Of a stretch of DNA of 64,000 bases, positions 45,740 to 54,400 are shown one piece after another. Position 1 is the stretch's first letter. Every line of letters begins with the position of its first letter. The translations under genes were made by a program, and so were the position numbers. Under the pieces are notes generated by a model that saw nothing but the letters and a program-made list of their open reading frames with translations, did no database searches and had not been told where the DNA came from. The stretch comes from Caldinitratiruptor microaerophilus. Lineage in GTDB: Bacteria > Bacillota > Sulfobacillia > Symbiobacteriales > ZC4RG38. The stretch is taken from contig NZ_AP025628.1 in assembly GCF_025999835.1 (NCBI RefSeq), positions 2,914,001-2,978,000 on the forward strand, in the 5' to 3' direction.

Positions 45740-47071
45740 CTAGCTCCGGTCCACGCGGTCGACCCGCACCTCCTCGCCCGTGCTGGCGTCGACGTAGATG
45801 TCGTACCGCAGGTCGTCCAGGCGGGCCCGCAGGCGGTAGGCCAGGACCTCCCGGTCCCGGTCCGCCTCGACGACGCCGAGCTGCACGTCCTCGACCGTGA
45901 CCCCCGGCTCCAGGTGCTCGGCGGCCTCGCCGGGGGTGATCGCCGGCCGGGCCAGCGTGCGGTCGCGCCGGTAGACCCAGTAGTCCCGCCCGTCAAAGCC
46001 GACGATCTCCCCGTTGTCCCGGGCCACCCGCACCTTCAGGCGCTGGGGGAAGAGCGCGACTCCGTCCTGCATCGGCACGAAGGTGACGACCGCGATGCCG
46101 CCGGCGTCGCCGTACTCGTCGTAGTCCGTCTCGAGAAGGGCCGGGAAGCCGTTCTTCTCGAGGAACTGCCGGGCCCTGGCCACCACCTGCTCCCGGCCGA
46201 GCTTGATCTGGGTGACCTCCCGCCCGTCGAGCATCTGCAGGACGTGCCCGCCCTGCTCCGTGACGGCGATGGTCACCGGGACCCCGCTGGTCTTCGTGTA
46301 GCTGACCAGGAAGACCGGGAGGGCGCCGTCGGCCCGGCCGGCCAGCTGGGGCCGGGTGGCCGGCGGCAGGTCGGCGAACCGGGCTGCGATCGCCAGCGCC
46401 TGGTCCTGCCCGATGCGCGGGCCCAGGTCCGACTTCGGCTTCTCGTGCGGTCCCGGCTGCGGCTGCGTGGCGGCCTCCTCGCCGGGCGGAGGCCGCAGCC
46501 CCGCCTCGATGCCGGAGATGCCCTGGAGGATCGGGGTCACGCCGGCGCCGTCGGCGCTCGCCGCGGTCATCCGCTCAGTGTCGGCCCAGCGGATGCGGCC
46601 GCCGGCGAGAAGGCCCGACAGCTTGGTGAGCTCGCCGGTGAGGAACCGCGCCTGCTGGTGCAGCTCCCGGAGCCGCGCCTTCTGCTCGGGAGTGAGCGGC
46701 TGGTTGCGGTCGAGCTGCACCAGGCCGGCGTCGGAAACCTCGAACACGTCGTTCAGGAACTTCTGGGTCCGCTCCAGCTTGACGTGGAGGAGCGGGAGCC
46801 CCGCCAGGGACTCCACCGCCGCGCTGCTGAACACCCGCAGGTCACCCAGCGTGCGGCGCTGAAGCGGCACGCTGCGGGCCACCAGGGCGGTGGACAGGCT
46901 CTCCTCGATGTTCACCACCGCCTGCTCGAGCCGCTGGAAGGCCTGCTGGTAGGCGTTCTCGCTCCGGATCGCCAGCTGGGCCCGGGCCCGGTTCTGGTTG
47001 TAGCCCCAGGCGAGGGCGGCCACGAGGGCCACCCCGAGCACCAGGACGGGCCACCACTGCCGCTGCCGCAT
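45740..47071 (-). CDS. ypeB: germination protein YpeB
   Basis: 443-residue protein with an N-terminal membrane anchor (WWPVLVLGVALVAALAWGY), a helical region, and PepSY-like repeats in the C-terminal half (RIGQDQALAIAARFADL..., DGREVTQIKLGREQVVARARQFLEKNG, ARPAITPGEAAEHLEPGV...). YpeB is needed for localisation and stability of the spore cortex-lytic enzyme SleB. The gene directly upstream encodes a SleB-type hydrolase, so the pair strongly supports the call and shows the organism forms endospores. ATG at 47071 with AGAGGGGG 8 nt upstream. Confidence 0.87.
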   Translation of the reverse strand: MRQRQWWPVLVLGVALVAALAWGYNQNRARAQLAIRSENAYQQAFQRLEQAVVNIEESLSTALVARSVPLQRRTLGDLRVFSSAAVESLAGLPLLHVKLERTQKFLNDVFEVSDAGLVQLDRNQPLTPEQKARLRELHQQARFLTGELTKLSGLLAGGRIRWADTERMTAASADGAGVTPILQGISGIEAGLRPPPGEEAATQPQPGPHEKPKSDLGPRIGQDQALAIAARFADLPPATRPQLAGRADGALPVFLVSYTKTSGVPVTIAVTEQGGHVLQMLDGREVTQIKLGREQVVARARQFLEKNGFPALLETDYDEYGDAGGIAVVTFVPMQDGVALFPQRLKVRVARDNGEIVGFDGRDYWVYRRDRTLARPAITPGEAAEHLEPGVTVEDVQLGVVEADRDREVLAYRLRARLDDLRYDIYVDASTGEEVRVDRVDRS

Positions 47072-47085
47072 GTCCGCGACCCCCT

Positions 47086-47544
47086 CTATCGGGCGAAGAT
47101 GTGCTTGCCGATCCGCCGTACCTGCGGGCGCGACCAGATGAAGCGGTTGCGCGTCTTGGCGGGGTTGAAGAAGTACAGCGAGCCGTAGCTCGGATCCCAC
47201 CCGTTCAGGGCGTCGCGGGCCGCGCGCCAGCACTCGGCCGTGACGTTGCGGTAGATCTGCCCGTTCGCCACGGATTCGAACGCCAGCGGCTCGTACACCA
47301 CGCCGGCGATGGTGTTCGGGAAGCGGCGGCTGTCCACCCGGTTCAGGATCACCGCGGCGACGGCCACCTTGCCCTCGTACGGCTCCCCCCGTGCCTCGCC
47401 GCAGACCGCCATGGCCAGGAGCCGCAGGTTGTTGTGGCGCCACCGCCCGCGGGCCTCGGCCGGCTCGCCGGCCGGTGGGGCCAGGGTGACGGCCGCGACG
47501 ACCAGGAGCCCGAGGGCGGCTGCCAGGCGCCATCGCCTCCGCAA
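47086..47544 (-). CDS. sleB: SleB-type spore cortex-lytic enzyme / cell wall hydrolase
   Basis: 152-residue exported protein: signal peptide (MRRRWRLAAALGLLVVAAVTLAPPAG) then a Hydrolase_2 (SleB) domain with MAVCGEARGEPYEGKVAVAAVILNRV carrying the catalytic Glu, and DSYG-like end WDPSYGSLYFFNPAK. It hydrolyses muramic-delta-lactam cortex during germination or acts on cell wall generally. There is no PG_binding domain, so the protein is shorter than Bacillus SleB. I choose the TTG at 47544 with GGAGGAG 9 nt upstream. It is 14 nt upstream of ypeB. Confidence 0.85.
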   Translation of the reverse strand: MRRRWRLAAALGLLVVAAVTLAPPAGEPAEARGRWRHNNLRLLAMAVCGEARGEPYEGKVAVAAVILNRVDSRRFPNTIAGVVYEPLAFESVANGQIYRNVTAECWRAARDALNGWDPSYGSLYFFNPAKTRNRFIWSRPQVRRIGKHIFAR

Positions 47545-47614
47545 CAGAACCAACTCCTCCAGCCGTGGGTTTGGCTGGAGGTAGTCTGCCGCCACGAGGG
47601 CTCGGGCTATTCGG

Positions 47615-49000
47615 TCAGCCTGCGCTCGCGCCGGTAGCGCGGGCACAGGCGCTCTCCCGCTCCAGCTTGAGGGTGACGAGCCGGCCGTCGGCGAGGGTGA
47701 GCGCCACGAAGCCGGGCACCACGGCGGGCTGGGCGGCGGGCGGTGCCGGCAGCGGGTGCTCCCAGACCGGAGCGCCGCCGGCCAGTGAGCGGGCGACGAG
47801 GCAGGGTCCGGGCCCCGCGCCCAGCGCAAGCGTGCCCGCCACCGCCACCGGCAAGGGGTCCGGGGGCGCTGAATCGTCCCCGTGCGGCCCGGCCACCTGC
47901 CAGCGGTACTCGCCGGTCCTGAGGTCGACCGCCCCGCCCGGGTAGACGGCCACCTCGCCCGCCACGGCGGGGGGCGCCGGCTCCGCCACCGACCAGCGCA
48001 GGACGCCGTCGGCGGCGCGCCGCGCCTGGCCGCCGATCAGGAGGAGATCGCCGGCGCATGCCGGCGGCACGTGGGGTGCGGCGGCGTGCCGCCACAGCAC
48101 TTCGCCCGTCTGCGGCGCCAGGGCCACGACCTCGTCCCCCAGGACGGCATACACGCCGGCCTCGGTCGCCGCCGGCGCCAGGGCGATCCCTTCCTTCGCC
48201 TCGTGGCGCCACACGCGGGCGCCGGTCTTCACCTCCAGCGCCCACAGGACCTGGCCGGCGGCCACGAGGAGGAGCCCCTCGGCGACCGCCGGGGCCTGCG
48301 CGGGCCCGTCACCGGCCCGGGTCCGCCAGACGATGCCGCCCCGGAAGGCGTCGACCGCGAGGACGAGCCCGTCCGGCGCCGCCAGGTAGACGAGGCCGTC
48401 GAAGACGGCCGGGGCCGCCAGGGCAGTGCCGGGCGCAGGGTCCAGGTCCAGCCGCCAGCGGGCACGGCCGGTGGCCAGATCCCAGCAGGCATACGCCCCG
48501 TCGCCGAGGCCGGCGTAGACGCGGCCGTACCGCACCACCGGCGGGGAGGGCCGAACCCTCCCCGGGACCCGGGGCCCGGCCTCCCAGGCCGGAGCCGCCC
48601 GCGCGGGGGAGGGGCCGGCCCCCGCCGACCGGCGGTCGGGGGTGCGCCCCCAGAAAGGCCACTCGTCGCCCGCTCCGGGACGCTCGGGGATCACGAGCTG
48701 CTGGCCGGGCAGGATGAACTCCGGGTGGGCCAGGTGGTTGGCGCGCACGATCTCGGCCGGGGTGGAACCGAACCGCCGCGCCAGGTGAAAGACGGTCTCC
48801 CCGGGCCGCACGAGATGCGTGATGCCGCCCGGCGGCGGCACCGGCACCTCGGCGGGTCCGGGGATGATCAGGGCCTGCCCGGGGGCGACGGCGTTGGGGT
48901 CCTCGATCCCGTTCGCGGCGACGATGGCGTGCACGGTGGTGCGGTACCTGCGGGCGATGCTGTAGAGCGTCTCCCCCCTCTGGACGAAGACGAACACCAT
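47615..49000 (-). CDS. protein with two LysM domains and a PQQ-type beta-propeller
   Basis: 461 residues. Two LysM domains (VFVQRGETLYSIARRYRTTVHAIVAANGI and HLVRPGETVFHLARRFGSTPAEIVRANHL) followed by a linker with aromatic WPFWGRTPD, then PQQ/pyrrolo-quinoline-type repeats (e.g. YACWDLATGRARWRLDLD, LAVDAFRGGIVWRTRAG, VVALAPQTGEVLWRHAA). No signal peptide is evident, so it may be a spore-coat or cortex-associated protein rather than exported, as for LysM proteins of sporulation. ATG at 49000 with AGGGGGG 9 nt upstream. It precedes sleB-ypeB by 70 nt, which suggests a sporulation-linked operon. Function unknown. Confidence 0.8.
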   Translation of the reverse strand: MVFVFVQRGETLYSIARRYRTTVHAIVAANGIEDPNAVAPGQALIIPGPAEVPVPPPGGITHLVRPGETVFHLARRFGSTPAEIVRANHLAHPEFILPGQQLVIPERPGAGDEWPFWGRTPDRRSAGAGPSPARAAPAWEAGPRVPGRVRPSPPVVRYGRVYAGLGDGAYACWDLATGRARWRLDLDPAPGTALAAPAVFDGLVYLAAPDGLVLAVDAFRGGIVWRTRAGDGPAQAPAVAEGLLLVAAGQVLWALEVKTGARVWRHEAKEGIALAPAATEAGVYAVLGDEVVALAPQTGEVLWRHAAAPHVPPACAGDLLLIGGQARRAADGVLRWSVAEPAPPAVAGEVAVYPGGAVDLRTGEYRWQVAGPHGDDSAPPDPLPVAVAGTLALGAGPGPCLVARSLAGGAPVWEHPLPAPPAAQPAVVPGFVALTLADGRLVTLKLERESACARATGASAG

Positions 49001-49062
49001 CCGGCGGAGCCCCCCTGAGCCCGTTCTGCACCATCGTACGTCGGGGGGATGCAAGCGGCCGC

Positions 49063-49108
49063 TCTCCCAAACCCACACAAACCTCAACACGCAGGTTTGG
49101 GTTTGGAG
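49063..49108 (-). repeat. imperfect hairpin at the 3' end of the IS607-type element
   Basis: Arms CTCCCAAACCC with GGGTTTGGAG and AAACCT with AGGTTT, interrupted by a small internal bulge, lying a few nt past the tnpB stop on the minus strand. It could end the tnpB transcript and lie close to or within the omega-RNA region of the element. Confidence 0.5.
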
Positions 49109-49111
49109 CTG

Positions 49112-50512
49112 TCATGCTCCGCATTTGATTTCCTGGCGGCTGGCGGCGTGATCATCCACCCGCCCGCCGGCGGCCCTCGGCATCTCCCGGATGCCTAGGC
49201 CGTCGAACCGCCAGGCCCGCCTGGTCCGGACGGCCACATGACCTCCCAGGTGGCCCGAGCAGGGCACCCCAAACTTTGCCAGCACCCGCGCCAGGCCGTT
49301 CAGGGCGGCGTTCTCGTCCCGGATGTGGCGCGTCCCGCAGTCTGGGCAGGTCCACTGCCGCACTTCGGGAGGAATCCCGTCCGGCGCCGCGCTGCCGCAC
49401 GCGCCGCACGTCCGCGTCGTGCCGCGTTCCTCCCAGACGCCGTAGACCTTCCCCGACCGCGCCGCCGTCCACGCCAGGGTCTCCTTGAACCGCCCGATCA
49501 GCGACTGGTTGTTCATGGCCCGGCGCATCTTGGTGCTGATTCCGCCGCCGTGCGGCGTGTAGTCCCCCACGAACACCCCGTCGTACTCCCGGTACAGCCG
49601 GTTGGCCACCGTGCGCAGGTACACCTTCGTCTGCTCTCGGCGCACCCGCCACAATTCATCCAACACAGCGTTCAGCCTCTGCCACCGCCGGGACGGCCGC
49701 CAGGACACCGACCCGCCGGGGCGGACCACCCGGACCGACTTCCGCCGGCACCGGTCCCGCAGCGACTTCACCTCGTCGATCCGCCGGTCCAGCGCCTTCA
49801 GGAACCACGGGTTGGCGATCTCCGTCGCCACGCCTTCCGTGTCCACCCCGTACCCCAGGTTCCTGTGGTTCGGGTCGATGGCGATGATCCGGCCTGCGGG
49901 CCGCGTGTCCGGAAGCACCCGCTCCACGGTGAAGACGGCATAGTAGATCCTCCCCTCCTTGGTGATGCGAAGCTGCCGCACCATGTCGTGACGGAACCAG
50001 TCCGGCGGCGGCTCGGCCAGCCGGACGGTGACGTGGACCCGCCGCCGCCGGCCCGATTCGGGGTCCAGCGACTGTCCCAGGGACAGTTCCAGCATCCGGC
50101 CGTGCAGGGCATAGCCCTTCCAGGGCTCGTCGTACAGGAGCGAGAACCATTTCCGCTTCCACGGCCGGAACCGCGGCCAGCGCACCCCACGGACCCGTCG
50201 TCCGTGGCGGCCCTTCTGGTGTTCCCGGATCGCCCAGCTCAGCCGCAGGGCCGCGTTCTTCAGCACCGACGAGTGGACCGTCCGAAGGAAGGGGAATTCC
50301 TGCTTCAAAGCGGGAATCCGATCCCGCAGGCCCCGCTCGGTGTACAGGACACGCGCCGCATCCGGGTCCCGGGTCTCCCGGAACCGCTGCCGCAGCGCGT
50401 TTGCCTCTTCCAGCAGGCGGTTGTAGAGCCAGTTGGCGATCCGGGACTGCCCGTCCAGCACCGCCGCGGTGTGCCCGTCCACTTCAAGCCGCATCTTCAG
50501 GGCGGATCGCAT
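49112..50512 (-). CDS. tnpB: TnpB (IS605/IS607-type RNA-guided nuclease), variant RuvC-II
   Basis: 466 residues: N-terminal OrfB-type helical domain, RuvC-I Asp213 in AIDPNHRNLGYG, a zinc finger (Cys369, Cys372, Cys389, Cys392: CGACG and CPDCG), and RuvC-III Asp399 in HIRDENAALN. At the RuvC-II position where most TnpB have a Glu (xxxEDL), this protein reads VFVGDYTP (Gly316, Asp317), so the canonical Glu is absent. Start ATG at 50512 has AAGGAGG 6 nt upstream and overlaps the tnpA end by 29 bp. Known role: RNA-guided cleavage that favours element retention. Activity of this variant is not known. Confidence 0.9.
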   Translation of the reverse strand: MRSALKMRLEVDGHTAAVLDGQSRIANWLYNRLLEEANALRQRFRETRDPDAARVLYTERGLRDRIPALKQEFPFLRTVHSSVLKNAALRLSWAIREHQKGRHGRRVRGVRWPRFRPWKRKWFSLLYDEPWKGYALHGRMLELSLGQSLDPESGRRRRVHVTVRLAEPPPDWFRHDMVRQLRITKEGRIYYAVFTVERVLPDTRPAGRIIAIDPNHRNLGYGVDTEGVATEIANPWFLKALDRRIDEVKSLRDRCRRKSVRVVRPGGSVSWRPSRRWQRLNAVLDELWRVRREQTKVYLRTVANRLYREYDGVFVGDYTPHGGGISTKMRRAMNNQSLIGRFKETLAWTAARSGKVYGVWEERGTTRTCGACGSAAPDGIPPEVRQWTCPDCGTRHIRDENAALNGLARVLAKFGVPCSGHLGGHVAVRTRRAWRFDGLGIREMPRAAGGRVDDHAASRQEIKCGA

Positions 50513-51116
50513 CGGCCGCCTCCTTCAGCCGCTGCATGACCTCCCGGTTCTTCCGGCTGCGGCTGCCGTACAGCCGGGCGGAGAAGACCGTGATGATCTC
50601 CAGCACGTCCTGCACCAGCTCCTCCTCGAAGGACGCCTCCTCGGACGCGCCCAGGATCACCACCTCCGTGCCGAAGTGCTCGCGCAGGGAGAAGACCAGC
50701 TCCGATCCGAAGCGCAGCAGGCGGTCCTTGTGGGTGACCACGAGCCGGCCCACCCGTCCGGTGCAGATCCGGCGGATCCGCTCCCGCAGGCCCCGCTTGT
50801 GGCAGTTGAGGCCGGACCCCAGATCCCGGATGACCTCATACCGCCAGCCGTTGGCGGCACAGAAGGCTTCCAGGAGGGCGACCTGGCGGTCCAGGTCGGC
50901 CTTCTGATCGTGGCTGGACACGCGGGCGTAGGCGATGGTGATCCGGTCCTGCTGCTGCGGGGCCCGCGGAACCAGGCCGCGCAGCACGGCCAGGTCGTAC
51001 CGGCGATGCCCGCCCGGCGTCCGTTCCGCCCGGATCTTGCCTGCCGCCTCCCACCGGCGCAGGGTCTCGGCGGAGACACCAAGTTCTCTGGCAGCCTTTC
51101 CGATTGAGACCTGCAT
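50484..51116 (-). CDS. tnpA: IS607-family serine recombinase (TnpA) with MerR-like HTH
   Basis: 210 residues: N-terminal MerR-like DNA-binding helix-turn-helix (IGKAARELGVSAETLRRWEAAGKIRAERTPGGHRRYD) followed by a serine-recombinase catalytic domain with nucleophile Ser67 in YARVSSHDQKADLDRQ and TGRVGRLVVTHKDRLLRFG. It catalyses strand exchange for IS607 transposition. ATG at 51116. A predicted promoter ends six nt before it, so the transcript may be leaderless. The frame is intact. Confidence 0.93.
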   Translation of the reverse strand: MQVSIGKAARELGVSAETLRRWEAAGKIRAERTPGGHRRYDLAVLRGLVPRAPQQQDRITIAYARVSSHDQKADLDRQVALLEAFCAANGWRYEVIRDLGSGLNCHKRGLRERIRRICTGRVGRLVVTHKDRLLRFGSELVFSLREHFGTEVVILGASEEASFEEELVQDVLEIITVFSARLYGSRSRKNREVMQRLKEAADAIRPEDAA

Positions 51117-51122
51117 ATCCAA

Positions 51123-51151
51123 ATCCTACATGCTGTGAGTGGATATGTCAA
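51123..51151 (-). promoter_or_regulatory. promoter of tnpA, probably giving a leaderless mRNA
   Basis: Minus strand: -35 TTGACA (51151-51146), 17-nt spacer, -10 TAGGAT (51128-51123). The expected transcription start coincides with the ATG at 51116. Confidence 0.6.
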
Positions 51152-51184
51152 GACATGTTGAGGATTTATGGAGCAGTTATGAGC

Positions 51185-51430
51185 CCCCCACTTCACGACC
51201 TCGCACTCCGCCTCCGAGCAGCCCATCTCCCTTGCGACGGCCTCTGCGAGTTCCGCCAGGTGCTCGCCGTGCCCCCCGGTGTACGTATGCTTGGCATCGA
51301 TCGCGTTCGACAGCGCCAGGATCATCTGGAGGTACGACTCCTCCATCTCCTGGTGCAGGACTGCCCGCCGGATCGCGTTGCCCGCCATGTCGGCGATGGT
51401 GCTCATCAGCCGTTGACAGTCCGCCGGCAC
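51185..51430 (-). pseudogene. remnant of an HD-GYP domain gene, truncated at both ends
   Basis: On the minus strand, 82 residues from the GTG at 51430 read as the end of a GAF-like domain (MSTIADMAGNAIRRAVLHQEME) and the start of an HD-GYP domain (LSNAIDAKHTYTGGHGEHLAELAEAVAREMGCSEAE). The catalytic HD and GYP motifs are missing. Homology stops at the G-run next to the IS607 element, and no continuation appears on the other side of the element, where the LysM-PQQ gene starts. So the 3' part of the gene was lost. The GAF part upstream is also absent. Confidence 0.65.
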
Positions 51431-51442
51431 GCTGACTATGAT
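51413..51442 (+). promoter_or_regulatory. sigma-A-type promoter of pyc
   Basis: -35 TTGACA (51413-51418, perfect), 18-nt spacer, -10 TATGAT (51437-51442). The start of transcription should be near 51449, about 35 nt upstream of the pyc GTG. It overlaps the 5' end of the HD-GYP remnant on the other strand. Confidence 0.7.
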
Positions 51443-51483
51443 GCAGACAACTTGAACATGGCGTCCGGCTGGGAGGTGCGCCT

Positions 51484-54400
51484 GTGGCCCACCGGCGGGA
51501 GTTCCGGCGGGTGCTCGTGGCGAATCGGGGCGAGATCGCGACCCGGATCTTCCAGGCGTGCACGGAACTCGGCAAGCAGACCGTCGCCATCTACAGCGAG
51601 GCGGACACCCTGTCCCTGCACCGGTACAAGGCGGACGAGGCGTACCTCGTCGGGGAGGGCCAGTCGCCCGTCGCTGCCTACCTCGACATCGACGGCATCC
51701 TGCGGCTCGCGCGCCAGAAGCAGGTGGACGCCATCCACCCGGGTTACGGCTTCCTGGCGGAGAACCCGGTTTTCGCCCGCCGCTGCGAGGAGGCGGGGAT
51801 CGCCTTCATCGGCCCCGAGCCGCGCCACCTGGAACTCTTCGGCGACAAGGTGGCCGCCCGCCGCCTCGCCCGGGAGGCCGGCCTGCCCGTCGTCCCCGGC
51901 ACCGACGAGCCCGTGGCGTCGGAGGCGGAAGCGCTCGCCTTCGCCCGGGAGCACGGGTACCCGGTCATCGTCAAGGCGGTGGCCGGGGGCGGCGGCCGGG
52001 GGATGCGGGTGGTCCGGGGCGAAGCGGAACTCCTCCTTGCCCTGGAGAGCGCCCGCTCCGAGGCCCGGGCCGCCTTCGGCGACGGCTCGGTGTACCTGGA
52101 GCGCCTGGTGCAGAGCCCCCGGCACATCGAGGTGCAGGTCCTGGGGGACCGGTCGGGCCGGGTCATCCACCTGTGGGAGCGGGACTGCTCGGTCCAGCGC
52201 CGCCATCAGAAGGTGGTGGAGGTGGCGCCGGCCGTCCGCCTGGACCCCGGGCTCCGGGAGGCCATCTGCCAGGCCGCCGTGGCCCTCATGACCCGGGCGG
52301 GGTACGTGAACGCGGGCACCGTGGAGTTCCTCGTCGACCGCGAGGGGCGCTTCTACTTCATCGAGGTCAACCCCCGCATCCAGGTCGAGCACACCATCAC
52401 CGAGCTGATCCTCGGGGTCGACATCGTCCAGGCGCAGATCCGCCTGGCGGAGGGCTACCTCCTCTCGGAGCTCGGGCCGATCCTGCCCGACCCGGAGCGA
52501 TTGGTCCCCCGGGGGTACGCCATCCAGTGCCGGGTCACGACGGAGGACCCCGAGAACGCCTTCCTCCCGGACACCGGCCGCATCACGGCCTTCCGCGCCC
52601 CCGGCGGGTTCGGCGTGCGCCTCGACGTGGGGGGCGGCCACGCCGGCGCCGAGATCACCCCACACTACGACTCCCTCCTGGTCAAGCTCAGCACCTGGGC
52701 CCTCACCTTCGAGCAGGCGGCCCGCAAGATGCACCGGGCGCTGCAGGAGTTCCGGGTGCGCGGGGTCAAGACGAACATCCCCTTCCTGGAGAACGTCGTC
52801 ACCCACCCCGACTTCCTGGCCGGGCGGGTGGACACCGGGTTCATCGACTCCCACCCCGAACTCCTCCAGTTCCCGCCCCGGCGGGACCGGGGGACCCGGC
52901 TCCTGCGCTACATCGCCCACGTGGTGGTGAACGGCTCCGAGGGGGTCCGGCCCGGCACCCGCAAGCCGAACCTCCGTCCCGCACCGGTGCCGCCCCCGGA
53001 CCCCGACTGGACCCCGCCCCCCACGGCCAAGGCGATCCTGGACCGGGACGGGCCGGAAGCCCTGGCCGGCTGGGTGCGGGCGCAGAAGCGGCTCCTCCTC
53101 TGCGACACGACCATGCGGGACGCCCACCAGTCCCTGCTCGCCACGCGGGTGCGCTCCCACGACATCCTCCGCATCGCCGAGGCCACCGGCCGCCTGGCCC
53201 CCGACCTCTTCGCGCTGGAGTGCTGGGGCGGCGCCACCTTCGACACGGCGTACCGCTTCCTCAAGGAAGACCCGTGGGAACGCCTGGCGGCCCTTCGCCG
53301 CCGGATCCCCCACGTCCTCTTCATGATGCTTCTGCGCGGCCAGAGCGTGGTGGGGTACGGCAGCTACCCCGACAACGTCGTGCGGGCCTTCGTGCGCGAG
53401 GCCGCCGCGGCGGGCATCGACATCTTCCGCATCTTCGACAGCCTCAACTACCTGCCGAACATGGAGGTCGCCATCGACGCCGTCCGGGCGGCGAGCAAGG
53501 TGGCAGAGGTGGCCCTGTGTTACACCGGCGACATCCTGGACCCGCACCGCACCCGCTACGACCTCCGCTACTACGTGCGGCTGGCGAAGGAGATCGAGCG
53601 GGCCGGCGCGCACATGCTGGCCATCAAGGACATGGCCGGGCTCCTCAAGCCCCAGGCGGCCTACCGGCTGGTGAAAGCGCTGAAGGAGGAGGTGGGCCTC
53701 CCCGTCCACCTGCACACCCACGACACGGCCGGCGCCGGAGTGGCGGCGGTGCTCAAGGCCGCCGAGGCGGGGGTGGACATCGCCGACGCGGCCCTCGGCG
53801 CCATGGCGGGCGGCACGTCCCAGCCGAGCCTGAACGCTGTGGTCGCCGCCCTGGAGGGTACCGACCGGGCCACGGGAATCGACCTGGACCGCCTCCAGGC
53901 CCTGTCCGACTACTGGGAGGTCGTGCGGACCTACTACTTCCCGTTCGAGGGCGGCTCGAACGCCCCGAACGCCTCCGTGTACCGCCACCAGGTCCCCGGC
54001 GGGCAGTTCACCAACCTGCGGCAGCAGGCCGAGGCGCTGGGGCTCGGGGACCGGTGGCCGGAGGTCGTCCGGGCCTATGCGCAGGTGGACGAACTCCTCG
54101 GCGAGCTCATCAAGGTCACCCCGTCCTCGAAGATGGTGGGCGACTTCGCCCTCTTCCTGGTGCAACAGGGCCTGACGCCGGCAGAGCTCGTGCGCCGGGC
54201 GCCCGAGCTCGACTTCCCGCAGTCGGTGGTCGACTTCTTCCGCGGCCTCCTGGGCCAGCCCCCGTACGGGTTCCCCGAAGAGCTGCAGCGGGCCGTGCTC
54301 CGGGGCGAGGAGCCCATCCGGGGGCGGCCGGGGGCGCTCCTGCCGCCGGCCGACTTCGACGCGGCGCGGGCGGCGCTGGCCGCCCGCACAGGCCGGCCGC

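What the first reader, a model, noticed from the sequence alone, without database searches (positions are those of the whole stretch)
49112..50512. TnpB lacks the usual RuvC-II glutamate
Seen: RuvC-I Asp213 and RuvC-III Asp399 and the zinc finger are intact, but the RuvC-II strand reads VFVGDYTP, with Gly where most TnpB carry the catalytic Glu. Known: TnpB and Cas12 normally use a D-E-D triad, and some TnpB lineages have rearranged or lost the second residue. Inference: the acidic role may pass to Asp317 or a residue elsewhere, or the protein may bind without cutting.
Basis: partly seen in the sequence, partly recalled or inferred. Interest (0 to 1): 0.55.

Follow-up and report, generated by a model that had tools for sequence, protein, structure and literature searches.

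The report
TnpB with a relocated catalytic glutamate
This DNA-cutting protein of a jumping gene has not lost its missing active-site glutamate but carries it 46 positions further along, as the related Fanzor proteins of eukaryotes do, so it is probably a working cutter rather than a dead one.

Summary
The 466-aa TnpB (49112-50512, minus strand) has Gly316 where canonical TnpB carries the RuvC-II glutamate. The acid sits elsewhere: Glu362, seven residues before the first zinc-finger cysteine, is the "alternative glutamate" (Ealt) known from Fanzors and a minority of TnpBs (PMC10711439). Of 63 homologous frames, 34 have Glu at the canonical site and not at Ealt; 22 have Gly there and Glu at Ealt; 4 are broken or partial; 3 are unscorable. 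A column scan finds that only column 316 loses an acid and only columns 246 and 362 gain one. Asp317 is Asn in a 74%-identical relative. Mimivirus Fanzor2, of known structure, aligns with the same Gly plus Ealt. The element is a complete-looking IS607: serine-recombinase gene, TnpB under purifying selection, structured right-end RNA; one relative has three near-identical copies in a genome. Binding without cutting is therefore unlikely, though no cleavage was tested. The less ordinary part is the RuvC-I motif Asp-Pro-Asn, which matches neither published Ealt signature (DPG, D-hydrophobic-G) but occurs in the Fanzor SpuFz1.

The parts
49059..51185 (-). IS607-type element, about 2.1 kb: left end begins GGCTC at 51185, right end finishes GAGAGCGG at 49059
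   Evidence: homology with L003, L042, L052 (right end also L004) stops at these points; exact end bases inferred, no empty site read
50484..51122 (-). tnpA, IS607 serine recombinase with N-terminal MerR-type HTH, 212 aa from TTG (ATG two codons in)
   Evidence: NF033518 211.3 bits against cut-off 110; PF00239 and PF00376; YARVSS motif
49112..50512 (-). tnpB, 466 aa, RNA-guided endonuclease with alternative RuvC-II glutamate
   Evidence: NF040570 127.4 bits against cut-off 100; AlphaFold model pLDDT 82 matches TnpB 8h1j at Z 27.4
49868..49876 (-). RuvC-I D213-P214-N215; D213 catalytic, N215 proposed second Mg2+ ligand
   Evidence: 11 rows read DPN and one DQN; SpuFz1 reads IDPN there
49562..49567 (-). 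G316-D317: the vacated canonical RuvC-II position and the residue after it
49427..49429 (-). E362, alternative RuvC-II glutamate (Ealt), E-x6-C
   Evidence: present in 22 of 22 scored rows with Gly at 316, in 0 of 34 with Glu at 316
49337..49408 (-). zinc finger / TNB insertion, C369-x2-C372 ... C389-x2-C392
   Evidence: PF07282 E 2e-14; alignment
49316..49318 (-). RuvC-III D399
   Evidence: Asp in 10 of 10 DPN, 7 of 7 other Ealt and 30 of 30 canonical rows
49059..49220 (-). predicted omega RNA scaffold at the right end, overlapping the 3' end of tnpB; its 5' limit is arbitrary
   Evidence: fold z -3.4; 98.8% of 258 cells paired, 6 of 52 pairs changed on both sides in 5 sequences; less synonymous change in codons 416-463
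49039..49058 (-). expected guide segment: host DNA just outside the right end
   Evidence: inferred from IS607 TnpB biology (PMC10711439 passage); its first 16 bases occur exactly once in the genome, with 5 further places at 1-2 mismatches

Best explanation
This is an RNA-guided TnpB nuclease of an IS607 element whose RuvC active site is D213, E362 and D399, probably with N215 as an extra metal ligand. The RuvC-II Glu is not at the end of the fourth RuvC strand (G316) but just after the next strand, in the loop before the zinc finger, from where it can reach the same pocket. Shown here: the swap of positions across homologues, the complete-looking element, and the structured right-end RNA. Inferred: metal binding, cutting, and the role (cutting the emptied donor site or uninserted copies so that the element is kept).
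For: Exclusive use of one site or the other: 34 rows Glu/no Ealt, 22 rows Gly/Ealt, 4 broken or partial rows, 3 unscorable, of 63. Column scan on 10 DPN, 7 other Ealt and 30 canonical rows: 316 alone loses the acid, 246 and 362 alone gain one. Tree of 46 rows: canonical and Ealt rows separate at 100/99, DPN clade 100/100. Model: strand 312-317, strand 356-361 with E362 directly after it, helix 398-414; [quoted passage not shown] Mimivirus Fanzor2 (9b0l) aligns with Gly at 316 and Glu at 362. SpuFz1 reads DPN in RuvC-I and its Mg2+ ions are held by E541, D383, N385 and D606 (PMC10432273, passage). dN/dS 0.20-0.31 in the ten pairs among five relatives. Covariation in the right-end RNA. In genome G587 two copies are each 99.4% identical to a third over about 2.04 kb.
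Against: No cleavage data. The model's coordinates could not be read, so no distances were measured and no metal was placed; only 5 of the 28 rows behind the model are Ealt proteins. D246 tracks Ealt as well as E362 does (17 of 17 against 0 of 30), although it lies in the helix 236-254. The relatives were found with this protein or profiles of its clade, so the counts are not a random census and many rows are near copies. In one search one of five measures, further standard pair types, was reached by 143 of 500 shuffles. The narrower NCBI models for IS607 and IS200 TnpB are far below their cut-offs. The frame ends three codons later than in L003 and L004.
Confidence: 0.88

Rival explanations
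1. A nuclease-dead TnpB that binds DNA without cutting, as the TldR transcription factors do.
For: The canonical RuvC-II Glu is absent; TldR-type TnpB derivatives exist (PMC13418256, search listing and start of abstract only).
Against: D213, D399, the zinc finger and a conserved Glu at Ealt are kept; tnpA lies next to it; a structured right end is kept; a relative has recently multiplied, which shows mobility, not cutting.
Confidence: 0.05
2. D317 takes over the role of the RuvC-II Glu.
For: It is next to the canonical position and is Asp in 6 of 7 rows.
Against: Asn in L004; Asp also stands there in 12 of 34 canonical rows, and it is not among the acids fixed in the clade.
Confidence: 0.03
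3. A decaying, recently inactivated copy: the loss of Glu is a passive mutation.
For: One full copy in this genome, with three short partial matches of 32-36 bases to its right end; the stop codon used by L003 and L004 is lost, adding three residues.
Against: Gly at 316 with Glu at 362 is shared by the whole scored clade; dN/dS 0.20-0.31; L042 has the same three-residue extension.
Confidence: 0.04

Closest known systems
Ealt TnpBs and pro-Fanzors (Yoon et al. 2023, PMC10711439; abstract, passages and section 23 seen)
   Same: Glu six residues upstream of the zinc finger (ExxxxxxC), no canonical Glu, IS607 association
   Different: RuvC-I reads DPN, not DPG (pro-Fanzors, Fanzors) nor D-hydrophobic-G; the host is not cyanobacterial
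Fanzor2 of mimivirus (PDB 9b0l, L79)
   Same: Gly at the canonical site and Glu at Ealt by profile alignment; same fold, Z 19.8, rmsd 4.0 over 365 residues
   Different: Protein of a virus of eukaryotes, 15-16% identity; its RuvC-I motif was not displayed by my searches
SpuFz1, Fanzor1 (PDB 8gkh)
   Same: RuvC-I reads IDPN; reported metal ligands E541, D383, N385, D606
   Different: Eukaryotic, larger; weak match only (E 0.03; Z 11.4, rmsd 5.6); no direct alignment of its E541 with E362 was obtained
ISDra2 TnpB (PDB 8h1j, 8exa, 8bf8)
   Same: Whole TnpB fold, best structural match (8h1j Z 27.4, rmsd 2.6 over 355 residues); RuvC-I and RuvC-III Asp, zinc finger
   Different: Canonical Glu on the RuvC-II strand, IS200/IS605-type element (recalled), 21% identity

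Membership tests
TnpB (guided_TnpB, NF040570) | Score above the curated cut-off | tested here: met
   127.4 bits against 100, residues 6-409
TnpB (guided_TnpB, NF040570) | RuvC domain in three parts with a zinc finger between II and III; TnpB fold | tested here: met
   PF07282 53.9 bits against 26.3; 8h1j Z 27.4
TnpB (guided_TnpB, NF040570) | Omega RNA at the element's right end | tested here: inconclusive
   structured and covarying in 5 sequences but transcription not tested; no Rfam match in 48800-51400
TnpB (guided_TnpB, NF040570) | RNA-guided DNA cleavage | not testable with these tools
   needs an assay
IS607_TnpB (NF038280) and IS200_TnpB (NF038281), narrow 'exception' models | Score above the curated cut-off | tested here: not met
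   31.7 bits against 350 and 59.3 against 425; so not filed in either
IS607 family element | IS607-type serine-recombinase TnpA next to tnpB | tested here: met
   NF033518 211.3 bits against 110
IS607 family element | Crossover at a short matching dinucleotide, no target duplication | tested here: inconclusive
   GG at both ends by comparison; no empty site examined
Ealt TnpB / Fanzor group | Glu seven residues before the first zinc-finger Cys, none at the canonical site | tested here: met
pro-Fanzor (PMC10711439) | DPG in RuvC-I | tested here: not met
   DPN; so not filed as a pro-Fanzor
pro-Fanzor (PMC10711439) | Cyanobacterial host | tested here: not met
   the nearest named relatives are Bacillota MAGs (L003, L004), and genomes of the window's own class hold matching loci with the same scores; the window's organism itself is not named
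Fanzor | Encoded by a eukaryote or its virus | tested here: not met
   3.6-Mb genome held in the prokaryote set
TldR-like inactive TnpB | Loss of RuvC catalytic residues and of the transposase partner (definition recalled) | tested here: not met
   D213, E362, D399 and tnpA kept
Cas12 (type V CRISPR) | CRISPR array nearby | tested here: not met
   only three two-copy repeat families at 74-82% identity within 46000-54000; nothing beyond that stretch examined

The most novel reading that the evidence does not exclude
A prokaryotic IS607 TnpB lineage (Bacillota genomes, a Cupriavidus plasmid, and two contigs of the viral collection, one of which reads DQN) carries the DPN-plus-Ealt active site seen in the Fanzor SpuFz1: a third Ealt class beside the published D-hydrophobic-G and DPG classes, with a four-ligand metal site (D213, N215, E362, D399). 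It could be a bacterial relative of Fanzors outside cyanobacteria, or an independent route to the same chemistry.
Probability: 0.3. Interest if true: 0.5.

Novelty: new variant of a known kind. Interest (0 to 1): 0.3.

Why it matters
It replaces a false lead (a TnpB without its catalytic Glu) with a testable rule: in the 56 scorable rows the RuvC-II Glu sits in one of two places, never in both. The DPN clade carries a Fanzor-like active site in bacteria without the DPG signature; the two patterns Yoon et al. used to collect Ealt proteins both demand a Gly two residues after the Asp and so could not have retrieved it. SpuFz1, which shares DPN, showed no robust collateral cleavage (PMC10432273, passage), so compact bacterial proteins with this site could be worth testing as genome editors.

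Tried and rejected
Asp317 as substitute: rejected, Asn in L004 and not clade-specific. Dead enzyme, TldR-like or decaying copy: disfavoured (see rivals). Cas12 effector: no array-like repeats nearby; PADLOC models for Cas12f, Cas12u and one called Csx1 score the protein at up to 73 bits, which I read as homology of the TnpB fold, not as defence. A known RNA family: none at E up to 1 in 48800-51400. Direct alignment of SpuFz1 E541 with E362: SpuFz1 was not listed with the RuvC-II/III profiles (which showed 60 of 62 matches), so that equivalence rests on the papers.

Whether the DPN/Ealt clade is in print: literature searches; no listing pointed to such a bacterial clade, and (terms 'DPN motif', 'pro-Fanzor', 'Ealt', 'RuvC-I motif', 'TnpB', any two) listed PMC10711439 alone. 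I saw passages and one section of that paper, not its supplements. The 2023 PNAS census of TnpB and Cas12 diversity, which reports rearranged catalytic sites in several branches, is recalled; none of these searches listed it, it was not read, and it may hold this branch. PMC11931038 was seen in one passage only.

The upstream fragment at 51184-51430 looks to me like the start of an HD-GYP gene cut by the element, but Pfam gave no match, so I do not claim it. Two outer pairs of the fold (columns 3-165, 4-164) looked spurious and were left out of the structure counted. In one search, frames under 350 aa, the near-copies L068 and L069 and one odd frame of L023 were left out; L067 joins the DPN clade only at 94/79 and on a long branch, and the program warned of several long-branch joins. 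Codons 416-463 for the synonymous test were chosen by me as the part overlapping the right-end RNA.

Full report
What is there. The finding's ORF is real: 49112-50512, minus strand, 466 aa, ATG start. It overlaps the end of a 212-aa IS607 serine-recombinase gene, tnpA, at 50484-51122 (NF033518 211.3 bits, cut-off 110). The protein passes the NCBI model for guided TnpB (127.4 bits, cut-off 100) but not the narrow IS607_TnpB and IS200_TnpB models; it passes PF07282 but not PF01385 (13.2 bits against 30.5). Comparison with relatives L003, L042 and L052 puts the element's left end at about 51185 (GGCTC...), and with these and L004 its right end at 49059 (...GAGAGCGG), beyond which homology stops. 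The genome (3.6 Mb, one contig) holds one full copy and one other TnpB, L002, which has the canonical Glu.

The observation. The alignment to ISDra2 TnpB sets G316 opposite Glu. So the canonical RuvC-II glutamate is really absent.

Where the glutamate went. Aligned to the 76% and 74% identical relatives L003 and L004 and to more distant ones (7 rows, among them L048 on a Cupriavidus necator plasmid), E362 and G316 are invariant, while D317 is Asn in L004. E362 is followed by six residues and then C369: the ExxxxxxC pattern by which Yoon et al. 2023 define the alternative glutamate (PMC10711439). I then scored every different open frame of at least 100 aa that matched the clade profile at E up to 1e-5 in the loci held (63 frames). 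34 have Glu at the canonical column and no Glu at Ealt; 22 have Gly at the canonical column and Glu at Ealt; 4 fit neither (the 5' pieces of the broken genes L044 and L046, the 3' piece of L044, which has Ealt, and L021, which has no scorable canonical residue and no Ealt); 3 had no Cys in the zinc-finger column. The rows are not a random sample and many are near copies. In a scan over all query columns (10 DPN, 7 other Ealt and 30 canonical rows of over 350 aa) column 316 alone is acidic in the canonical rows and not in the others, and columns 246 and 362 alone show the reverse. The tree of 46 long rows separates canonical from Ealt rows at 100/99 and holds the DPN clade at 100/100, in line with the clear Ecan/Ealt separation that Yoon et al. 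report.

How common. At profile E up to 1e-20, 5 of 398 genomes sampled from the phylum matched; at 1e-30, 12 of 154 genomes of the class did, of which the five strongest genomes carry members of this clade and the seven others D-Leu-Gly/Ealt proteins (six) or a canonical one (L060). Two further classes of the phylum gave 2 of 22 and 4 of 113 genomes at 1e-40, not all of them DPN members.

Structure. An AlphaFold model from a 28-row alignment has mean pLDDT 82 and pTM 0.69. It has a strand at 312-317 that holds G316/D317, a helix 328-353, a strand 356-361 with E362 directly after it, the zinc finger, and a helix 398-414 that holds D399 near its start. The structural paper PMC11423790 (passages and section 7 read) describes the catalytic Glu as lying in the loop between the fifth strand and the TNB domain, which is where E362 is. 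The best solved match is TnpB 8h1j (Z 27.4, rmsd 2.6, 355 residues); mimivirus Fanzor2 9b0l is at Z 19.8 and SpuFz1 8gkh at Z 11.4. By profile alignment 9b0l has Gly opposite G316 and Glu opposite E362 (NEYLTTKTC). I could not read the model's coordinates, so the closeness of E362 to D213 and D399 is inferred from topology.

RuvC-I. The motif is D213-P-N215. In one search eleven rows read DPN and one, L061, reads DQN; the frames of L066 and L045 scored there lack RuvC-I, but a neighbouring frame of L045 reads LDPNHKN. SpuFz1 also reads IDPN, and the paper on its structure says that its two Mg2+ ions are held by E541, D383, N385 and D606 (PMC10432273, passage). The DPN in that sequence most simply is D383-P-N385, though I did not see the chain's numbering. 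N215 as a metal ligand is therefore a prediction.

Is it alive? dN/dS in the ten pairs among five relatives, this gene included, runs from 0.20 to 0.31. The right end folds with z -3.4; 1 of 200 shuffles folds at least as well. In five sequences 98.8% of cells pair; six of 52 pairs are changed on both sides (shuffled mean 3.0, reached by 4 of 500), while the number of further pair types is not unusual (143 of 500). Synonymous change is lower in codons 416-463, which overlap that RNA, than elsewhere (0.16 against 0.28, permutation p 0.0145). In genome G587 a clade member is present three times; two copies are each 99.4% identical to the third over about 2.04 kb, and the matches stop at the same ends with different flanks. 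Recent mobility of a relative does not prove that its TnpB cuts, but with all three acids, zinc finger, tnpA and the structured right end kept, a dead protein is the less likely reading.

What to call it. It works, by inference, like an Ealt TnpB or a Fanzor. By the tests made it is a TnpB of an IS607 element. It is not a pro-Fanzor by the published definition (DPG not met) and not a Fanzor (prokaryotic). The relocated glutamate is already known; the DPN version in bacteria did not turn up in the papers I could search, with the caveat that the 2023 PNAS census was not among them.

Noticed in passing
L067 1372-2811 (G558); L044 and L046 (two places of G358): Genomes of the window's phylum with the DPG-plus-Ealt signature that Yoon et al. 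call mostly (results) or exclusively (discussion) cyanobacterial. L067 is a 480-aa open frame; L044 and L046 are broken by a stop before the zinc finger.
   Followed up: partly
window 49775-49777 (residue D246 of TnpB): An Asp in helix 236-254 that is acidic in 17 of 17 Ealt rows and 0 of 30 canonical rows; its role is unexplained.
   Followed up: no
L004 2543-3035: The tnpA of this otherwise close relative matches in two overlapping frames of 146 and 80 aa and no left end was found, so its recombinase gene may be divergent or broken.
   Followed up: no
L048 2224-4494 (Cupriavidus necator C39 plasmid p1): A DPN/Ealt tnpB with an IS607-type tnpA upstream in a betaproteobacterial plasmid; the collection's table lists no gene there.
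   Followed up: partly
window 45740-47829 and 47615-49003: Beside the element: YpeB-like and cell-wall-hydrolase (Hydrolase_2) frames and a LysM plus PQQ beta-propeller protein, which suggests a spore-related neighbourhood; a pyruvate-carboxylase-like gene lies on the other side.
   Followed up: no
window 51184-51430: A short frame abutting the left end may be a gene cut by the insertion; no Pfam match.
   Followed up: partly
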